62,768 nt of DNA from a virus. Numbering within the stretch: the first letter of the stretch is position 1; every line of letters begins with the position of its first letter. The position numbers and the translations under genes are program-made. Location: the IMG/VR virus record IMGVR_UViG_3300027852_000042, positions 1 through 62,768 of that record; one strand, written 5' to 3'. Below are positions 24,244-51,099 of the stretch, piece after piece. The notes under the pieces are model-generated. The model made no database searches. It had not been told where the DNA came from and was given only the letters and a program-made list of their open reading frames with translations.

Positions 24244-25110
24244 TTAATTCACGTCTATCTCCCTTCCAACATCGGTTAAGTTTTCATCAAAGTTATTCTT
24301 AACCTTGCTCATCTCATCAAGGATAATATTTGCGAGACCATCATTGTCTCGCATGTCATTTCCAGAATAGTATCCTATAATTTCGTGGGCTTTGTCAACC
24401 AGTGATTCTAATTCACTGTCATCGAAAGCATTTCTGTCCTTGAAATTATCGAGGAAACTCTGAAAGCCTTCAACCGAAGAGTTTTTAAATATTTTCCTTT
24501 TCCCATCTTCATCTGGGGTCAACTTGTCACACAAATGTTGTACCATGCCTCCAAATTCTGTACGTAGGGCCATGATACCCATTTCCCTGGCCTCTTCCAT
24601 GGTTGTAAGGAACTTTTCCTTCTCTCTTGCATATAGTTCCGGGGAAAGAAGGCTTGCCTTGTCCGGAGTGGTAAGTATTAAAAACTTCCACTCGAACTTA
24701 AACTTTTTGTTTATATCTGATGGGTAGTCTTTGGGGTCAAACAATCCTTTCAGGACATACTCTGCCCTTTCTATAAGCGTTTCGTATGGAAACCTGGACA
24801 CCCTCTCGTAAAATTCTTCTTGGAACTCTGTAAGTTTCGCATCTATCTTATCGATAGAGTCTTTGGATACAAAGACAAGTCCTTTGATCGGAAAGGGAAG
24901 GGCGTGGGACTCAAGATACTTCCGAGCCAATGATGCAATCTTGTTAATCCTGGATATCTCGTTGGGATCTACAAGGTTTTTTGTACCCTTGACCCATTGC
25001 CCCATTTTATCTTCTACCACCTTGGAATTAATCTTCTTTGTTCCCATCCACCTTGAAATGGATAGTTGTATCAGACACCCTAATTCGAATATGTTACTTT
25101 CGTCATGCAT
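24244..25110 (-). CDS. DUF3150-like protein paired with the AAA+ ATPase module
   Basis: 288 aa. The N-terminal region (SISRWMGTKKINSKVV, then GTKNLVDPNEISRI and a FPIKGLVFVSKDSIDK segment) resembles the DUF3150 family, which is often encoded with phage AAA+ ATPases. The remainder is helical, with a FEWKFLILTTPD strand near residue 148. Function unknown. Same operon as the Ycf46-like ATPase, so a shared complex is a reasonable inference. Confidence 0.55.
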   Translation of the reverse strand: MHDESNIFELGCLIQLSISRWMGTKKINSKVVEDKMGQWVKGTKNLVDPNEISRINKIASLARKYLESHALPFPIKGLVFVSKDSIDKIDAKLTEFQEEFYERVSRFPYETLIERAEYVLKGLFDPKDYPSDINKKFKFEWKFLILTTPDKASLLSPELYAREKEKFLTTMEEAREMGIMALRTEFGGMVQHLCDKLTPDEDGKRKIFKNSSVEGFQSFLDNFKDRNAFDDSELESLVDKAHEIIGYYSGNDMRDNDGLANIILDEMSKVKNNFDENLTDVGREIDVN

Positions 25111-25124
25111 TTTACTTACCTCCT

Positions 25125-25301
25125 TTAAGGTATTACTACCTTTGCTTCTCGCACTACACCTTCATCGTCAATCTTGATTTCAAGTACAACCTCATTGAAA
25201 TGCCTGAACATCTTTAGTGCTTCTTCTGTCAGACCAATTTCTACTCCCTTGTTATAGGCTGCCTCGCTACTTATTTCCGCACTGATTGTCGCTGTTTTCA
25301 T
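25125..25301 (-). CDS. Small hypothetical protein
   Basis: 58 aa from the ATG at 25301, which has a GGGGGGTGAG site; longer in-frame starts would overlap the upstream gene. Sequence pattern: a short N-terminal strand, a helix GLTEEALKMFRHFNEV, and a final pair of strands (VVLEIKIDDEG, VREAKVVI). A compact alpha/beta miniprotein in the ATPase operon; no family recognised. Confidence 0.55.
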   Translation of the reverse strand: MKTATISAEISSEAAYNKGVEIGLTEEALKMFRHFNEVVLEIKIDDEGVVREAKVVIP

Positions 25302-25305
25302 CTTC

Positions 25306-25494
25306 TCACCCCCCTTGATCAAACTGACTAAAGTAATCATCTTCCAGTTTTTTCTTTTGAGCCTTAAGGTATAGCTCATTAGGCTCTCCCCATGTTGCCC
25401 CACAAGTATCGCATGTGATATAAATCACCGCGTCCTGATCTGTTGGAACCTTATACGAATAGTTACATGTGTTACAAACGTGACAACTTGTCAT
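25306..25494 (-). CDS. Small zinc-ribbon protein
   Basis: 62 aa from the ATG at 25494, with AGGAG upstream. Cys residues form CHVCNTC near residues 4-10 and CDTC near residues 29-32, followed by a W-G-E-P turn, a rubredoxin-type zinc ribbon. The tail is a charged helix. It lies between the DUF2997-like gene and the 58-aa gene in the ATPase operon. Confidence 0.6.
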   Translation of the reverse strand: MTSCHVCNTCNYSYKVPTDQDAVIYITCDTCGATWGEPNELYLKAQKKKLEDDYFSQFDQGG

Positions 25495-25505
25495 AGTAGC
25501 TTCTC

Positions 25506-25703
25506 CTATCCACAAAGGTTTGAGTTTAAGTTGTGCTTAATGTTAGTCTCATACCACTCAGCTTTCTTTTTGAAGTCTGTACTTTCTCCAAGAGTTTTTG
25601 TAATCAACTCCATGGCACTCTTACACCCTTTACCATGGAACCCATTAGCTTCTACTTTGGCCTCTCCTGTATTAAGATCGAACTCCAGTGTTATTGTTTC
25701 CAT
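25506..25703 (-). CDS. DUF2997-like protein
   Basis: 65 aa. The pattern M-E-T-I-T-L-E-F-D, then G-E-A-K-V-E-A-N-G-F-H-G-K-G-C, then helix SAMELITKTLG is the DUF2997 layout: two strands, a G-x-x-G-x-x-C turn and a helix. Genes of this family are commonly next to DUF1257/Ycf35 and Ycf46-like ATPase genes, exactly as here. Function is not known to me. Confidence 0.7.
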   Translation of the reverse strand: METITLEFDLNTGEAKVEANGFHGKGCKSAMELITKTLGESTDFKKKAEWYETNIKHNLNSNLCG

Positions 25704-25719
25704 TTATACCTCCTCCTCC

Positions 25720-26070
25720 TTACATGTAAACCACCAGCTTCAATTCACCCTGTTTTGTCACACTTTCCGAGAAGGTGTGTCCTAGCTTACGAGCTTCTAG
25801 TTTAGCCTTCTCTACGCCATAGTAAGCTGTCAGTTTTGATAGCTCTTTCTCATCTCCCCACTGTCCATGGTAAGTATCATATGATACCACCCCATTGGGT
25901 TTTAATACAACCGGGTATCGCCACTCCGGGAGAAACACCCCAAATCCCTCCTCTTCAGAAGCATATAGCTTGAAACTACCCTCTCTTCCCTCTATGCCAA
26001 GCCTTTTACATGCTTCTTTCAGTGCAGTTTTATCCTTCATCTCTGTCTTTACGTTCATTGTGCTACTCAT
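25720..26070 (-). CDS. Ycf35/DUF1257-like protein
   Basis: 116 aa, starting in an ATGA overlap with the ATPase gene. It matches the DUF1257 plan: an N-terminal strand MNVKTEMKD, helix KTALKEACKRLG, a central beta region with WRYPVVLK, YDTYHGQWGD, then helix LSKLTAYYGVEKAKLEARKLG and a final GELKLVVYM strand. In cyanobacteria and plastids this family is Ycf35. Its association with the AAA+ ATPase suggests a cofactor or substrate adaptor; unproven. Confidence 0.7.
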   Translation of the reverse strand: MSSTMNVKTEMKDKTALKEACKRLGIEGREGSFKLYASEEEGFGVFLPEWRYPVVLKPNGVVSYDTYHGQWGDEKELSKLTAYYGVEKAKLEARKLGHTFSESVTKQGELKLVVYM

Positions 26071-27470
26071 AAACTTAACCTCCTTTCCTTGGCTTTCTTT
26101 GGGTTATCTTGAATGGTTGCATATCTTGCGTTGTTCTTGGCCCACCCCCTCGTCTTTTCTATGTTATCTTTGTTCTGTATGTAGATAGGCTTAATGTTTT
26201 CAAGGGCACTTTCTTCGCCATCGTAGATAGAGGCTACCACAAACTTTTCTATTTCTGCACCGGTCCAGTTCATCATCTTTTTGGTGAGAGGGAGCTTGTG
26301 TTTTGTCCCGTACCTTTTGTTCATAATCTTGAGAATCTGCTTCCTTTCTTTGTCGTTCGGTAAATCGAGGAAGAAGATATCATCAAACCTACGTAGTAAG
26401 GCCCCCTGTGAGACGGCTAACAGGTCTTCAACGTCATTGCAGGTAGCTACTACATACTTTGGTTTAACACTTTCCTGCATCCACGTTAGAAGTGTACCAA
26501 ACATTGCAGACCCGGTACCACCGTCTGTTTTGTTGGATGATATGGCACCCCCGACATTCTTCTCTATCTCATCACACATTACTACGCATGGCGAGATAGC
26601 GTCAATCAAGGACAATGCCTGGCTCATATTCTTTTCGGATTCCCCTACGCGAGATCCTTTCAGGCTTGCTATGTTAAGGTTAACCAATGGGAACCCCAAC
26701 ACTGAAGCCGTAACCTTTGATGATAGAGATTTACCAGCACCAGGAAGGCCAACTAAAAGGATACCTCTAGGTGTGGGTAGGTTGGTATCCCAGAAGCCTT
26801 TTTTTCTATTGTGAAGGTACTTTTTAAGCCCATCGAGCCCACCAAGCTCTGACTCCTTAACTGCGGTGCCTATCTCCATAAGCCCAGACTTTTTAATTCC
26901 CTGAAGTTTCTCTTCTTCGAGTATACTCATGTCTATTTTCTTTGTTGATACCAGACTTCGAGCTAAAGCATTCTCTGCTTCAAATGCTGTAAGCCCACAA
27001 GCGGCAGCCATTGCCTCTTTATCTATCTTGATAGAGAGATTGTTATCCTTATTTACCTTGCCAATAATATCTTTAGCCATACCTACCAACTCCTCCTGTG
27101 TTGGTAATGGAAAATCGATTAACGTAATATCCTTTTCTAACTCTATTGGAATGTTGACCACCGGAGAAACTATTATCAGGTGCTTTTTCTTGGTCTTCAA
27201 TGTGTCCCGCAGGTTTTTTATTGTCCTGAAGATCTCGGTGCCACCAATGAACTTGTGGTAATCTTTCAGGAACATTATACTGTGTATCTCCATTGATTCT
27301 ATGCCTATGAGTGGAGACATGGGGTCTCCATCGCCCATAGCTATATCCCAGGACAGACATTCATATCCAAGTTCAACTGCCTCCACTCCCATAGCACTGA
27401 TTGCCCTGTCTTCCTCATGGGTTTGTACCCACAAGATGGGATACCCTCCCTTCAGGTATTGTGTTATCAT
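26067..27470 (-). CDS. AAA+ ATPase of the Ycf46 type
   Basis: 467 aa, start preceded by GGAGG. An N-terminal domain (1-200) begins GGYPILWVQTHEEDRA, typical of Ycf46. The AAA+ core has Walker A GLPGAGKS (241-248), Walker B VVMCDE (296-301), sensor 1 VVATCND (340-346) and arginine finger LLRRFD (359-363). These ATPases act as ring machines on unknown substrates; Ycf46 has been linked to photosynthetic CO2 use in cyanobacteria. Here it is encoded with Ycf35-like, DUF2997-like and DUF3150-like genes, so a remodelling complex is likely. A role in replication or host takeover would be a guess. Confidence 0.85.
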   Translation of the reverse strand: MITQYLKGGYPILWVQTHEEDRAISAMGVEAVELGYECLSWDIAMGDGDPMSPLIGIESMEIHSIMFLKDYHKFIGGTEIFRTIKNLRDTLKTKKKHLIIVSPVVNIPIELEKDITLIDFPLPTQEELVGMAKDIIGKVNKDNNLSIKIDKEAMAAACGLTAFEAENALARSLVSTKKIDMSILEEEKLQGIKKSGLMEIGTAVKESELGGLDGLKKYLHNRKKGFWDTNLPTPRGILLVGLPGAGKSLSSKVTASVLGFPLVNLNIASLKGSRVGESEKNMSQALSLIDAISPCVVMCDEIEKNVGGAISSNKTDGGTGSAMFGTLLTWMQESVKPKYVVATCNDVEDLLAVSQGALLRRFDDIFFLDLPNDKERKQILKIMNKRYGTKHKLPLTKKMMNWTGAEIEKFVVASIYDGEESALENIKPIYIQNKDNIEKTRGWAKNNARYATIQDNPKKAKERRLSL

Positions 27471-42998: not shown

Positions 42999-43185
42999 GA
43001 AAACCTACGTTGTTCTGTGTCCAATAAGTGGTACACAAGTGTATTCGGTTGTGGCGGAGAGTGCGGCAGAGGCAAAGCGACTGGTGGACGAAAATGATCT
43101 GTCTATTGAACCAGTTGATGGTATTATTGACAAGAGAGGAAGGGCAAGTAAAGCGTTTTTGGATGGAGGTGAACATGAAAGTTAA
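42982..43185 (+). CDS. Small hypothetical protein, possible relative of the previous gene
   Basis: 67 aa from a GTG, overlapping the previous gene by 17 bases. It repeats the strand-helix pattern (YSVVAESAAEAKRLVDEND) and ends KAFLDGGEHES. No family assigned. Confidence 0.5.
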   Translation: MKKGIKKTYVVLCPISGTQVYSVVAESAAEAKRLVDENDLSIEPVDGIIDKRGRASKAFLDGGEHES

Positions 43186-43729
43186 AGAGTTTTTAGAGTT
43201 GGTGGCCCATAAAGGAAAGCTTGATTGTGGAGATATTGAGGAATCGGAGGTTTGGTTAAGTAATTTTGATGATAGCTACCTAATCCATGTCGGCCTGGAA
43301 GATAAAATTAAATTTCTAGCTGACAGAGAAATTACTGAAGAATTAACGCATGGCGTGGGGTTTAGCCCAAAAGACAATAAGTGGTACGGATGGAGTCATA
43401 GGGCAATTTATGGCTTTACTATTGGCTCTACGTGCAAAAAAGGTGACTGCCATTATCGAGCGGCAAGTGAAAAGGATGAGATTGAGGCCGCCATTAATTT
43501 TTGGTCTGATGAAAACCACATAAACGTAAGGGCTGAAAAAGTAAAAGATGGAGAAATTATTGTTTCTTGGGAGTGCGACGATAAAACTCCAAACGAGAAA
43601 TTGAGGGGCACAATTAGAAGCGTAGATTGGCAATATGATCATGAAAACTTTGGGAAGGGTGAGTGGGTTGCCGAGACAATGGAGGAAGCTAAAAGAATGG
43701 CCCAAGATTTTAATGAGGGCGTAAGTTAA
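43175..43729 (+). CDS. Conserved phage hypothetical protein
   Basis: 184 aa from the ATG at 43175 with GGAGG upstream. The segment KWYGWSHRAIYGFTIGSTC near residues 70-88 and a DEIEAAINFWSDENH helix later are features I recall from conserved phage proteins of unknown role. Acidic overall. Confidence 0.6.
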   Translation: MKVKEFLELVAHKGKLDCGDIEESEVWLSNFDDSYLIHVGLEDKIKFLADREITEELTHGVGFSPKDNKWYGWSHRAIYGFTIGSTCKKGDCHYRAASEKDEIEAAINFWSDENHINVRAEKVKDGEIIVSWECDDKTPNEKLRGTIRSVDWQYDHENFGKGEWVAETMEEAKRMAQDFNEGVS

Positions 43730-46894: not shown

Positions 46895-47327
46895 TTGTGG
46901 CTGGGCTCTACAAACTAGAGGAACAAACAGCCATTCTGGTGTTAAGAAGTTCTTTATAGACCGTGGCGAATCCCCTGGAATGAGGTTTCTTAGGTTTAGG
47001 TCGTGGCTCAATCAAATGTATAGGCTTGCAAGTAATGAGATAGATGTCATAATATATGAAGCCCCCCACCATAGGGGTGGACATTCAACCCAGGTAGCCT
47101 ACGGATTTATTACCGAGATATTGTCCTTTGCCGCAGATCGTGGAATCGAAACTATGAAACCGGTTCACACTGGAACCTTGAAGAAGTTTGCCACCGGAAA
47201 GGGTAATGCAGGAAAGGAAGAAATGATTCTTGCTGCTAGGCGTATGGGGTGGGACGTTGAAGATGGTAATGACGATGAGGCGGACGCTATTTTAATGTTG
47301 GAATATGCGAAGAAAGAATTGGGGTGA
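46839..47327 (+). CDS. RuvC-like Holliday junction resolvase
   Basis: 162 aa. RNase H-fold resolvase plan: ILALDQASSCGWAL near 11-24 (first Asp15), VIIYEAPHHRGGHSTQ near 69-84 (Glu73), HTGTLKKFATGKGNAGKEEM near 107-126, and DDEADAILML near 146-155 (acidic pair). The family cuts branched DNA, so it fits recombination-dependent replication and clearing of junctions before packaging. ATG start; GTG-linked alternatives are shorter. Confidence 0.8.
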   Translation: MGTVKPKSLGILALDQASSCGWALQTRGTNSHSGVKKFFIDRGESPGMRFLRFRSWLNQMYRLASNEIDVIIYEAPHHRGGHSTQVAYGFITEILSFAADRGIETMKPVHTGTLKKFATGKGNAGKEEMILAARRMGWDVEDGNDDEADAILMLEYAKKELG

Positions 47328-47337
47328 GCTTAAAACA

Positions 47338-48009
47338 ATGTTACCTGTTGCATATGTTGAGGCAAGAGATATTCCCGATGCATGGTTTCAGTGTGTGTCA
47401 AAAGTTTTAGATGTTGGGTTTAAGTATCAAGTTCAACATGGGTCATATGTTGGTCAAACTAGGTTGGAATTCGATTGGATTACGGTTCAAATCAATTATC
47501 CTTATTCTGAGCCTTATGACACAATGTTACCGGAGATTCCGGTACAGTTAGGAATTCCTAATCCGGTGTCCCCGGGGTATATTGCAGCCTACCTGTCCTA
47601 TTTGATGACTGAGCATAAAGAACCCAACGAAGATTATACGTATGGCTCAAGAATTTGGCATCAGGTGCCACGCTTTATTGAATTACTGAAGAACACACCG
47701 AATACTAATCAAGCTGTTTTGCAGGTGGCTCAAGTTACCGATCACGCGCTCAATGATCCTCCCTGTCTTCGACATATAGACATCAGGATTAAAGATGGAG
47801 CATTAATATTCTATCCATACTTCCGATCGTGGGATTTGTGGGGAGGGTTTCCGGCAAATCTTGCCGCAATTGCTGTGTTGCAAAAGTATGTGGCCGATGG
47901 AGTTGGTGTTGATAGTGGACCGATTATAGCATCAAGCAAGGGTCTTCATGTCTATGGGTATGTTGAAGATCTTGCAAGAATCAGGTGTTATAAATATGGG
48001 GGGGGATAG
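47338..48009 (+). CDS. Thymidylate synthase (archaeal-type) or dUMP/dCMP hydroxymethylase-like
   Basis: 223 aa from the ATG at 47338 with GGGGTGAG upstream. C-terminal half: DPPCLRHIDIRIKDGALIFY near 137-156 (catalytic Cys140), then FRSWDLWGGFPANLAAIAVL and SKGLHVYGYVEDLA. This matches the methanogen-type ThyA family more than the bacterial one (R-S-W-D in place of R-S-x-D). It makes dTMP from dUMP supplied by the dUTPase. A hydroxymethylase for modified bases cannot be ruled out. Confidence 0.75.
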   Translation: MLPVAYVEARDIPDAWFQCVSKVLDVGFKYQVQHGSYVGQTRLEFDWITVQINYPYSEPYDTMLPEIPVQLGIPNPVSPGYIAAYLSYLMTEHKEPNEDYTYGSRIWHQVPRFIELLKNTPNTNQAVLQVAQVTDHALNDPPCLRHIDIRIKDGALIFYPYFRSWDLWGGFPANLAAIAVLQKYVADGVGVDSGPIIASSKGLHVYGYVEDLARIRCYKYGGG

Positions 48010-48283: not shown

Positions 48284-48806
48284 CCCAACAGTTCTTGGCC
48301 CAGAAGATTACTCAAGTAAGCTACCGGCCACCATAACTGAACAAGAAAGACTTTTTATGGAAGGGGTGCAAGACGGACTAAGTATGCCCCAGGCATGGGT
48401 ACAGGCCGGGTTTGAGTCTGAGAACAGAATAGATGCAGCAAGAAAGGCCAGGAGATTATTTAGGGAGATCACAAGGGACTCTATGGAGTTGGCTAAAGAG
48501 TTTCTTTTGGATGACATATTTCTCTATGGTCAACTACGGTTCCTCATTGTTTCTGCTACTAATGAGAACGCCAAGGTCAGTGCCTTAAAACTAGCTTTTG
48601 AGGTTAGAAAACTTCTTTCTGCAAACTACCAAACCGGTAAAAACATTTTAATCATAAGAAACGAAAGAGAAACCAAGGTTCAAATGGATGATGGCGCAAT
48701 AATAGACATCACCCAGATTAAAGAAGATGCTGTTTCTACCAAACCTCAACTACTACTAGAGGAAGAAGGTAGAAACGTGCCGGAGGAATCCGAAGATGCT
48801 ATCTGA
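48273..48806 (+). CDS. Terminase small subunit (probable)
   Basis: 177 aa from the ATG at 48273; overlaps both neighbours by 11 bases. Residues 20-60 have a helix-turn-helix-like helix set (TITEQERLFMEGVQDGLS, then MPQAWVQAGFESENRID), and the rest is helical with a flexible acidic tail. The call rests on size, DNA-binding-like helices and position directly before the large subunit. It would recognise the packaging site. Confidence 0.6.
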   Translation: MENDPTVLGPEDYSSKLPATITEQERLFMEGVQDGLSMPQAWVQAGFESENRIDAARKARRLFREITRDSMELAKEFLLDDIFLYGQLRFLIVSATNENAKVSALKLAFEVRKLLSANYQTGKNILIIRNERETKVQMDDGAIIDITQIKEDAVSTKPQLLLEEEGRNVPEESEDAI

Positions 48807-51099
48807 TAAAATAGAACTATCTAAGTCACAGGAAAGATTTGCTTTTTCAGATGCCGTGGTAGTTGTTATATATTCCAACACCGGTGAAGGTAAAACGTAT
48901 GCTGGTGTTATTGCCATGTTGATACATGCCAGTAGGTGTGGTAGGCCAATTAACTGCGCCATTGTAAGAGATACCCATGAAAACATAAAACTTAGCCCCG
49001 TTAGAACAATTCAAAGGGCCCTCGATGGCATAAATCCACCAGCAAAAGATGGAACTCAAAACCTATACACCTTCAAAAACGATTACAAACAACTTACAAT
49101 TCACACTCATCCAGCTATTATGGTTGATTTGTTTGGGATAGATGACCCAGCAAGTCTTTCAAGACTTCAGGGGCCTGAATATGACCTTATCTGGTTAGAG
49201 GAACCCGCCCCAATGGTATCGAAAGTAAATGCAGGATTAAGCGAGGATGTTTTTAATGCGGCTCTAGTTAGGGCCACGAGGGGTACTGCTGGTAAGTTTA
49301 ACCGACTACAGATAACTATGAATCCGGCAGAAGATACACATTGGACATTCCGTAGGTTAATAGATTGTGACCAAATCGATCCGGATAACCCTCTCATTAC
49401 TAAAGAGGTTATTAGGATACCGTATGGTGAGAATAGATTTGTTTCAGAGGTTTCAAGGCAGGGTGTAAAGGCTGCATATAAAGATGATCCAGATTCGTAT
49501 AAGAGATATGTTGGCGGAGAATTTACTGAAGTATATGGAGGTATAAAAGTTTCCCCAGATTATGTTGGTGATATCCATAGAAGTAAAGATTTTCTTTACC
49601 CTTTAGATGGTTTACAGGGGTTTAGGGGGTGGGACGGATGGACAAACCCATCTTGTTACGACATTAAAACGAAGATATTAACGAACAATGGATGGAAACA
49701 TTACTCGAACTTCGATAAGAAAAGTGATTTGGTTTTAACTCTAAACCCTGATACCAGAATTATAGAGTATCAGGAAGCCACGGGCGTTATAGTCAAACTA
49801 TTTACCGGTCAGATGTGTCACTGGAATAACAAGAACTATGATGTGAGGGTTACGTTTGACCATGATATGTGTCATGATCAAAAGGGTAAAATAGATTTTG
49901 TCAAGGCATATGCATACGAAGAGTATGTATTGCCTGGGAGTGGCATTTGGCCTGGCAATATAAAAAAGGGAATGAGTGATATTCTGGGTGACGTTTCACC
50001 CGTAGATTTCTGCGCGTTTTATTTTATTTTTATGAAATATGGTTTTTTAAGTTCATTCGAAGTAGGAATTAACTCTAAGGTCACAGCTCTTTTTGACAAA
50101 CAAAAAGATAGTATAGATGATTTTTTATCTCGCGTTGGTGATTCACATTGGGATGGTTTATGTTGGTGGGTAAGGGTGTCTGACACAATGTTTGATTTTT
50201 TAAGACGGTCGAGGGCAACCAGTGATTTTATGCCCAGTTGGCTTGAAGATATGCCTGGGGATGCAATAGGGGCTGGTTTATATTTTTCTAACAAGTTTTC
50301 TGAGGCTAATGAATCACGACCACACTTAGAGGGAAGGTCTACTGGGTTAACTATGAAGTCATCGAGACGTAAGGGGGCCGAACTTAGGGGTGATTTTCTT
50401 TCTACACAAGAAGTATCTGAGGAAAAAGTATGGTGCATCTCCGTTCCAAACAGGATTATAGCTGTTCAAAGAAATGGTCCTCCTGTATGGAATGGCAACT
50501 GTATCTTGGGCCAAATAGCTCACAACGGAAGATTGACCTTTCTTGATTCGGTAAGAATATCTAATTCAGATGTCGGTGTTTTGATTAATTCTAAGGTAAA
50601 TCCCCTCCTGCAATCTCCTCGATGGAAAGGTAAGTGTAATGGTTGGAGGGATATTGGTGATGTTTCAATGAAAACTCCAGATCAAAGTAATAGGGAAGAA
50701 TCGGCCTCTAGGGTTGTAGAGGCCGAATTAGATACTTACTTTGAATGCGGACCTAAACATTGGACGTACTTAAAGAAGGCTGTTATTCGGGCTCTAAACA
50801 TGTCTATCCAGGGTAAGCCAGCCATTTGTCTAAGTTCGCGAGAGAAGCTTTTACATGCTGCCTTACGTGGTGGTTGGCAATATAAGACCGATCATTCCGG
50901 AAATATAGTAAGTGGTATCCCGGATAAAAATGAACATAGTCATATTGGAGATTGTTTTGCAAACCTTGTTAGCGTTTTATTGCCGGGCACAAATTTACGA
51001 AGCGCGAAAAGAGAACAGTTGCGTAAAATGAGTGCTCGGGGTAGGAAAAGGGCTGCATCCTATAGTCAAGGAGGAAGCCAAAGGAAGATAACTTTGTAA
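48796..51099 (+). CDS. terL: Terminase large subunit interrupted by an intein
   Basis: 767 aa precursor; about 485 aa after intein removal, a usual length for a terminase. ATPase: Walker A GEGKT at 30-34 in SNTGEGKTYAG, Walker B LIWLEE at 131-136. Nuclease: RGWDGWTNPS at 277-286 (Asp280) continues across the intein into CILGQIAHNGRLTFLD. The intein (282 aa) sits in the nuclease active site, just after its first Asp. The enzyme packages DNA into the procapsid using ATP and cuts it. Confidence 0.9.
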   Translation: MLSDKIELSKSQERFAFSDAVVVVIYSNTGEGKTYAGVIAMLIHASRCGRPINCAIVRDTHENIKLSPVRTIQRALDGINPPAKDGTQNLYTFKNDYKQLTIHTHPAIMVDLFGIDDPASLSRLQGPEYDLIWLEEPAPMVSKVNAGLSEDVFNAALVRATRGTAGKFNRLQITMNPAEDTHWTFRRLIDCDQIDPDNPLITKEVIRIPYGENRFVSEVSRQGVKAAYKDDPDSYKRYVGGEFTEVYGGIKVSPDYVGDIHRSKDFLYPLDGLQGFRGWDGWTNPSCYDIKTKILTNNGWKHYSNFDKKSDLVLTLNPDTRIIEYQEATGVIVKLFTGQMCHWNNKNYDVRVTFDHDMCHDQKGKIDFVKAYAYEEYVLPGSGIWPGNIKKGMSDILGDVSPVDFCAFYFIFMKYGFLSSFEVGINSKVTALFDKQKDSIDDFLSRVGDSHWDGLCWWVRVSDTMFDFLRRSRATSDFMPSWLEDMPGDAIGAGLYFSNKFSEANESRPHLEGRSTGLTMKSSRRKGAELRGDFLSTQEVSEEKVWCISVPNRIIAVQRNGPPVWNGNCILGQIAHNGRLTFLDSVRISNSDVGVLINSKVNPLLQSPRWKGKCNGWRDIGDVSMKTPDQSNREESASRVVEAELDTYFECGPKHWTYLKKAVIRALNMSIQGKPAICLSSREKLLHAALRGGWQYKTDHSGNIVSGIPDKNEHSHIGDCFANLVSVLLPGTNLRSAKREQLRKMSARGRKRAASYSQGGSQRKITL
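49654..50499 (+). other. Intein (Hint domain) inserted in the terminase nuclease site
   Basis: Residues 287-568 of the precursor. Block A begins with Cys1: CYDIKTKILTNNGWKHYSNF; block B contains VRVTFDHDMCH (T-x-x-H); the C-terminal end is VWNGN followed by Cys+1 of the extein. The penultimate residue is Gly rather than His. The middle 130 residues have no clear LAGLIDADG motif, though FCAFYFIFMKYGF and WLEDMPGDAIGAGLYF could be decayed versions. Confidence 0.85.

What the first reader, a model, noticed from the sequence alone, without database searches (positions are those of the whole stretch)
49654..50499. 282-residue intein in the nuclease active site of the large terminase
Seen: a Hint block A beginning CYDIKTKIL directly after RGWDGWTNPS, a T-x-x-H block B, and the ending VWNGN before Cys+1. 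Removal restores a continuous nuclease motif. The penultimate His is replaced by Gly and the endonuclease centre seems decayed. Inteins favour essential conserved sites; this one splits the active site, so packaging needs splicing. A conditional splicing step is possible.
Basis: partly seen in the sequence, partly recalled or inferred. Interest (0 to 1): 0.72.

Follow-up and report, generated by a model that had tools for sequence, protein, structure and literature searches.

The report
Decayed intein splitting phage terminase nuclease
A phage gene for the DNA-packaging motor carries a self-removing protein insert (an intein) right beside a catalytic residue of its DNA-cutting site; it looks able to splice itself out but has lost the enzyme that once let it spread, which makes it a clean but fairly ordinary example of a known kind of element.

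Summary
ORF 48796-51099 is a large terminase (TerL) whose residues 287-568 (nt 49654-50499, 282 codons) are an intein. Profiles from 57 related inteins, built without this one, find both ends. AlphaFold gives a Hint fold (best match Z 19.7). In 44 of 44 close TerL relatives the site is empty and continuous, and 41 of 44 already carry Cys at the +1 position.

The insertion lies 6 residues after the motif I Asp of the nuclease domain. Splicing residues are intact (Cys1, TxxH, Asn282, Cys+1). The penultimate Gly is not a defect: 110 of 118 related phage inteins have it, and a Gly-ending phage intein splices well in published work.

The LAGLIDADG endonuclease looks dead: both catalytic acids are replaced and much of the second half is deleted. 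One IMG/VR terminase (L089) has an intein at the same bond with both motifs intact, and is the window intein's sister in the tree. Other inteins sit 1 codon downstream or 4 upstream, so this motif is a hotspot.

TerL inteins are known. Nothing here supports conditional splicing, and splicing itself was not tested. New member of a known kind.

The parts
48796..51099 (+). TerL precursor ORF (767 aa) with intein
   Evidence: Terminase_3, E 5.7e-11; PHROG terminase profiles; precursor model matches terminase structures
48796..49653 (+). N-extein, 286 aa: ATPase domain and first strand of the nuclease domain up to RGWDGWTNPS; Asp280 = motif I
   Evidence: Asp280 invariant in TerL alignments; empty-site relatives
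49654..50499 (+). Intein, 282 aa, class 1 type, Cys1 to Asn282
   Evidence: Profiles, Hint fold with pLDDT 86.4, structure matches, conserved residues
49654..49950 (+). N-terminal part of the splicing domain (blocks A to B: Cys1, Thr67, His70)
   Evidence: Profile match from residue 1; conservation
49999..50394 (+). Remnant of the LAGLIDADG endonuclease: first half folded but acid replaced (Tyr129), second half mostly deleted; limits approximate
   Evidence: Alignment columns 310-513; low-confidence stretch 215-232 of the model; no Pfam LAGLIDADG hit
50398..50499 (+). C-terminal part of the splicing domain (blocks F and G: Cys261, Gly281, Asn282)
   Evidence: Profile match 249-282, 30.9 bits
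50500..51096 (+). C-extein, 199 aa, from Cys+1 (CILGQ): rest of the nuclease domain with the invariant Asp at extein positions 340 and 437

Best explanation
This is a class 1 intein at motif I of the TerL nuclease domain. The 767-aa precursor is translated and the Hint domain folds. Cys1 attacks the Ser286-Cys1 bond (N-S acyl shift), Cys+1 takes over the N-extein, Asn282 cyclises, and the exteins join as RGWDGWTNPS-CILGQ, giving a 485-aa TerL with a complete nuclease site. The intein arrived as a homing element: a relative with an apparently intact LAGLIDADG endonuclease sits at the same bond in another phage. It has since lost that endonuclease and persists because a phage that loses splicing loses TerL. 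Shown here: boundaries, predicted fold, splicing residues, empty-site relatives, loss of endonuclease residues. Inferred: that it splices, that packaging needs splicing, and the homing history.
For: Profiles find both ends. Hint fold with pLDDT 86.4, 6zgq Z 19.7, 2.2 A over 143 residues, and endonuclease-bearing inteins over 257-266 residues. Empty site in 44 of 44 relatives, with Cys at +1 in 41. Cys1 in 118 of 118, His70 in 116 and Asn282 in 113 of 118 related inteins, all present here. Endonuclease acids lost: 55 of 56 relatives have an acid where the window has Tyr129; 55 of 55 have Asp where the window aligns Ala207. L089 has an intein at the same bond with both motifs and is the sister row, support 93/91. 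A Gly-ending phage intein splices completely in published work (PMC5050341).
Against: Splicing was not assayed. Both His that can help Asn cyclisation (penultimate and block F) are missing, although 47 of 110 Gly-ending relatives also lack both. Ser255 and Gln272 depart from nearly fixed Tyr and Arg. The sister relation to L089 rests on 133 columns, a long window branch and a bootstrap that had not settled. The alignment across the second LAGLIDADG motif is gappy, so the exact residue opposite the Asp is unsure.
Confidence: 0.93

Rival explanations
1. The intein no longer splices efficiently: it mainly cleaves at one end or stays as precursor, so TerL is made as fragments or at low dose.
For: Both His that assist Asn cyclisation are absent, and two nearly fixed residues (Tyr255, Arg272) are changed. 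The intein branch is long (1.83).
Against: All nucleophiles, the TxxH motif and the terminal Asn are kept, the frame is open, and TerL is essential for packaging in tailed phages (established knowledge). Loss of the endonuclease without loss of the splicing domain is what selection for splicing alone would leave. Many relatives lack the same His.
Confidence: 0.05
2. Conditional splicing: the intein delays the terminase nuclease until a signal (redox, metal, stage of infection) allows splicing.
For: Published proposals for TerL inteins (Mic1, PMC7156551) and general evidence that some inteins respond to stress (PMC5050341). Cys1, Cys+1 and several further Cys could form disulphides.
Against: Nothing in the sequence tests it. 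The intein is absent from 44 of 44 close relatives, so no such control is needed by the lineage. Cys1 is shared by all 118 relatives whatever the host gene.
Confidence: 0.05
3. Assembly chimera: the segment was joined into the terminase gene during metagenome assembly.
For: None of the 44 close relatives carries the segment, and the record is a metagenome contig.
Against: The frame is kept on both sides and the insert runs exactly from Cys1 to Asn before Cys+1. G+C is 39.1% against 40.9% and 41.7% in the exteins. Codon usage correlates with other structural genes at r = 0.90. The sister intein sits at the same bond in L089.
Confidence: 0.01

Closest known systems
IMG/VR L089 (UViG_3300035698_014395) TerL motif I intein, found here
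   Same: Same insertion bond (HHPA|C, against TNPS|C), same ending GN|C, sister in the intein tree
   Different: 328 aa with both LAGLIDADG motifs kept; the same ORF has a second intein at motif III
IMG/VR TerL inteins at DFGL|TPA (L097, L124, L133, L184, L193 and others), found here
   Same: Same intein family, same nuclease motif I
   Different: Four codons upstream, Thr at +1, a separate clade in the tree, endonuclease motifs kept
Mic1 cyanophage TerL inteins (PMC7156551)
   Same: Intein in the TerL nuclease domain; authors propose control of packaging
   Different: Nuclease-domain insertion is at motif III (DHL|C...SN|CDALRY), the other in the ATPase domain
Mycobacteriophage TerL1/TerL6 inteins and the RDF intein (Kelley et al. 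2016, PMC5050341)
   Same: TerL as the favourite intein host; class 1 inteins with penultimate Gly that splice
   Different: All their TerL insertions are in the ATPase domain; the two TerL endonucleases they tested cut DNA
P1201 ThyX, Lak-A1 and BF766P4 phage inteins
   Same: Same block A, B, F and G patterns and GN|C/S ending
   Different: Other host genes (ThyX; an M15 peptidase in BF766P4; unassigned in Lak-A1); LAGLIDADG_3 detectable, below the cut-off in BF766P4
delta-group crAss-like phage TerL inteins (PMC7886860)
   Same: Inteins in phage TerL
   Different: Hint-Hop type as described there; insertion points not given in the text read

Membership tests
Intein | In-frame insert; removal restores a continuous host protein | tested here: met
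   44 of 44 relatives uninterrupted at the site; joined exteins align through it
Intein | Hint (hedgehog/intein) fold | tested here: met
   pLDDT 86.4 model; intein structures at Z 13 to 19.7; prediction only
Intein | Self-splicing | not testable with these tools
Class 1 intein | Cys or Ser at position 1, block B TxxH, terminal Asn, Cys/Ser/Thr at +1 | tested here: met
   Cys1, Thr67, His70, Asn282, Cys+1
Class 1 intein | Penultimate His | tested here: not met
   Gly281; but 110 of 118 relatives have Gly and Gly-ending phage class 1 inteins splice (PMC5050341), so it is usual rather than defining
Class 3 intein | No nucleophile at position 1, and a Trp-Cys-Thr triplet | tested here: not met
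   Cys1 present; Met72 in place of Trp, Asn280 in place of Thr; only the block F Cys (261) matches
Mobile intein with LAGLIDADG endonuclease | Two LAGLIDADG motifs with catalytic acids | tested here: not met
   First acid replaced by Tyr129, second Asp lost, following conserved block deleted; no Pfam hit
Phage large terminase (TerL) | Walker ATPase plus RNase H-like nuclease with three acidic positions | tested here: met
   Terminase_3; GxGK, Asp280, Asp340 and Asp437 of the joined protein invariant; terminase structures matched

The most novel reading that the evidence does not exclude
A homing-dead intein at nuclease motif I has been kept as a switch that holds back DNA cutting by the terminase until a cellular or infection-stage signal allows splicing.
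Probability: 0.05. Interest if true: 0.7.

Novelty: new member of a known kind. Interest (0 to 1): 0.3.

Why it matters
It adds nuclease motif I to the places in the phage packaging motor where inteins settle (ATPase domain and motif III were described before), and shows at least four insertion points within a few codons there, partly held by separate intein lineages. The window intein and L089 form a pair, dead and apparently live endonuclease, at one bond, which suits a study of the homing cycle in phages. The practical value is in annotation: Pfam and NCBIfam saw no intein here, so an automatic annotation would give a wrong terminase protein.

Tried and rejected
Pfam and NCBIfam scans of the intein found nothing, so the case rests on profiles made here. 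Single-sequence scans of IMG/VR and of bacterial genomes found no relative; alignment-led scans did. A class 3 mechanism was considered because the closest solved structure, 6zgq, is class 3 and Cys261 matches its block F Cys; rejected because Cys1 is present and the Trp and Thr are missing. BF766P4, the only tblastn hit of the precursor, might have been a TerL but is an M15 peptidase gene with an intein. Two GenBank terminases that matched an intein-bearing query (H91, H92) proved uninterrupted. The precursor AlphaFold model is poor in the intein because its alignment held few inteins; it is used only for the exteins. No second intein was found elsewhere in the window. Searches were scripts that failed on file names and gave no data.

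Full report
What was checked. The window is a single IMG/VR virus record of 62,768 bases. ORF 48796-51099 encodes 767 residues. Residues 287-568 (nt 49654-50499) begin CYDIKTKILT and end PPVWNGN, followed by Cys. Outside this segment the ORF is a large terminase: Pfam Terminase_3, PHROG terminase profiles and, for the modelled precursor, Foldseek matches to the terminases of D6E, Sf6, P74-26, T4 and HK97.

The segment is an intein. Relatives were gathered from phage isolates and from IMG/VR. An alignment of 58 inteins was used to build profiles without the window sequence. The N-terminal and C-terminal profiles hit this ORF among 611 six-frame ORFs of the window (3.7e-25 and 1.6e-11) and no other ORF passes 0.1; the full profile gives 135.0 bits. 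AlphaFold with that alignment gives pLDDT 86.4. The model matches solved intein splicing domains (6zgq Z 19.7, 2.2 A over 143 residues) and, over 257-266 residues but at 5.3-7.6 A, endonuclease-bearing inteins such as PI-PfuI, PI-SceI and the VMA inteins.

The boundaries are exact. The joined exteins align to Pasteurella phage Pmp11 TerL through the junction (65.9 bits joined, 43.9 bits for the best unjoined piece). A capsid-protein search and a TerL alignment search brought closer relatives, 34-58% identical in TerL. In all 44 the site is uninterrupted: window FRGWDGWTNPS|CILGQIAHNGRLTFLD against, for example, FRLWDGWHNPSCLLGQITSIGRTVIID and FAFFDSWHNPSCVLGQITMANRLIFID. Cys stands at the +1 position in 41 of 44, so the native protein most likely supplied the nucleophile. 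Asp280 is invariant and is taken as the motif I catalytic Asp from established knowledge of the terminase nuclease fold. The insert begins 7 residues after it, between strands 273-280 and 566-574 of the precursor model.

Splicing residues. Cys1 (118 of 118 relatives), Thr67 (115), His70 (116), Cys261 (103) and Asn282 (113) are kept. The penultimate Gly is found in 110 of 118 relatives; 47 of those 110 also lack the block F His, which is Arg here. Kelley et al. (PMC5050341) report that mycobacteriophage class 1 inteins often lack the penultimate His, that a Gly-ending one splices completely, and that changing its Gly to His slows it. So this feature is not decay. Departures from near-fixed positions are Ser255 (Tyr in 115) and Gln272 (Arg in 108). 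It is not a class 3 intein: position 1 is Cys, and the Trp and Thr of the WCT triplet are missing (definition from PMC7664689).

The endonuclease looks dead. In the first LAGLIDADG motif the acid (55 of 56 relatives) is Tyr129 and the helix Gly (53 of 56) is Phe124. In the second the Asp (55 of 55) is lost and the following conserved block is deleted, although the alignment is gappy there. The intein is 282 aa where relatives have a median of 348; only two of 118 are shorter. Residues 215-232 have no confident structure. P1201 and Lak-A1 relatives pass the Pfam LAGLIDADG_3 cut-off and BF766P4 falls just below it; the window intein has no hit.

Where it came from. L089, a TerL from another IMG/VR contig, has an intein at the homologous bond (GWDFGYHHPA|C...GN|CVVAF) with both LAGLIDADG motifs. 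It is the window intein's sister in a 112-row tree, support 93/91; the window branch is long and the bootstrap had not settled, so this is good but not firm. Other inteins lie 4 codons upstream (DFGL|T; at least nine contigs, mostly one clade), 1 codon downstream (L130) and at DWGG|T (L158). Nuclease motif I is therefore a hotspot. The published Mic1 nuclease-domain intein is at motif III instead (PMC7156551), and mycobacteriophage TerL inteins are all in the ATPase domain (PMC5050341). No paper found describes the motif I site, but the library holds only open-licence papers and the search was short.

Judgement. Most likely a splicing-competent, homing-dead class 1 intein in TerL. That packaging needs splicing follows from the position and is likely, but was not tested; conditional splicing is unsupported. 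The kind is known; the exact site and the dead/live pair are modestly new.

Noticed in passing
window 43028-43729 (+): 233-aa ORF matches Pfam Tad6, a Type I Thoeris inhibitor, at E 2.4e-36: a likely anti-defence gene.
   Followed up: no
L089 ORF at 3626, downstream of the motif I intein: The same TerL ORF carries a second intein at nuclease motif III (DHL|C...SN|CDSLRY), the site used in Mic1. The ORF starts without an obvious ATPase domain, so that part may be a separate ORF.
   Followed up: partly
L130 ORF at 2270: TerL that appears to hold two inteins, one near the Walker A region and one at NPFV|C, a codon downstream of the window's site.
   Followed up: partly
L277 ORF at 3: An intein (PEAHFA|C...GN|TFPP) in what looks like a DNA methyltransferase, on a contig whose TerL site is empty.
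   Followed up: no
window 47305-48009 (+) and L162 ORF at 3425: The window's thymidylate synthase-like ORF has no intein, while a similar-looking ORF in L162 has one.
   Followed up: no
window 24244-27470 (-): Minus-strand block with an AAA ATPase (26067-27470) and a DUF3150 protein (24244-25110); function unclear.
   Followed up: no
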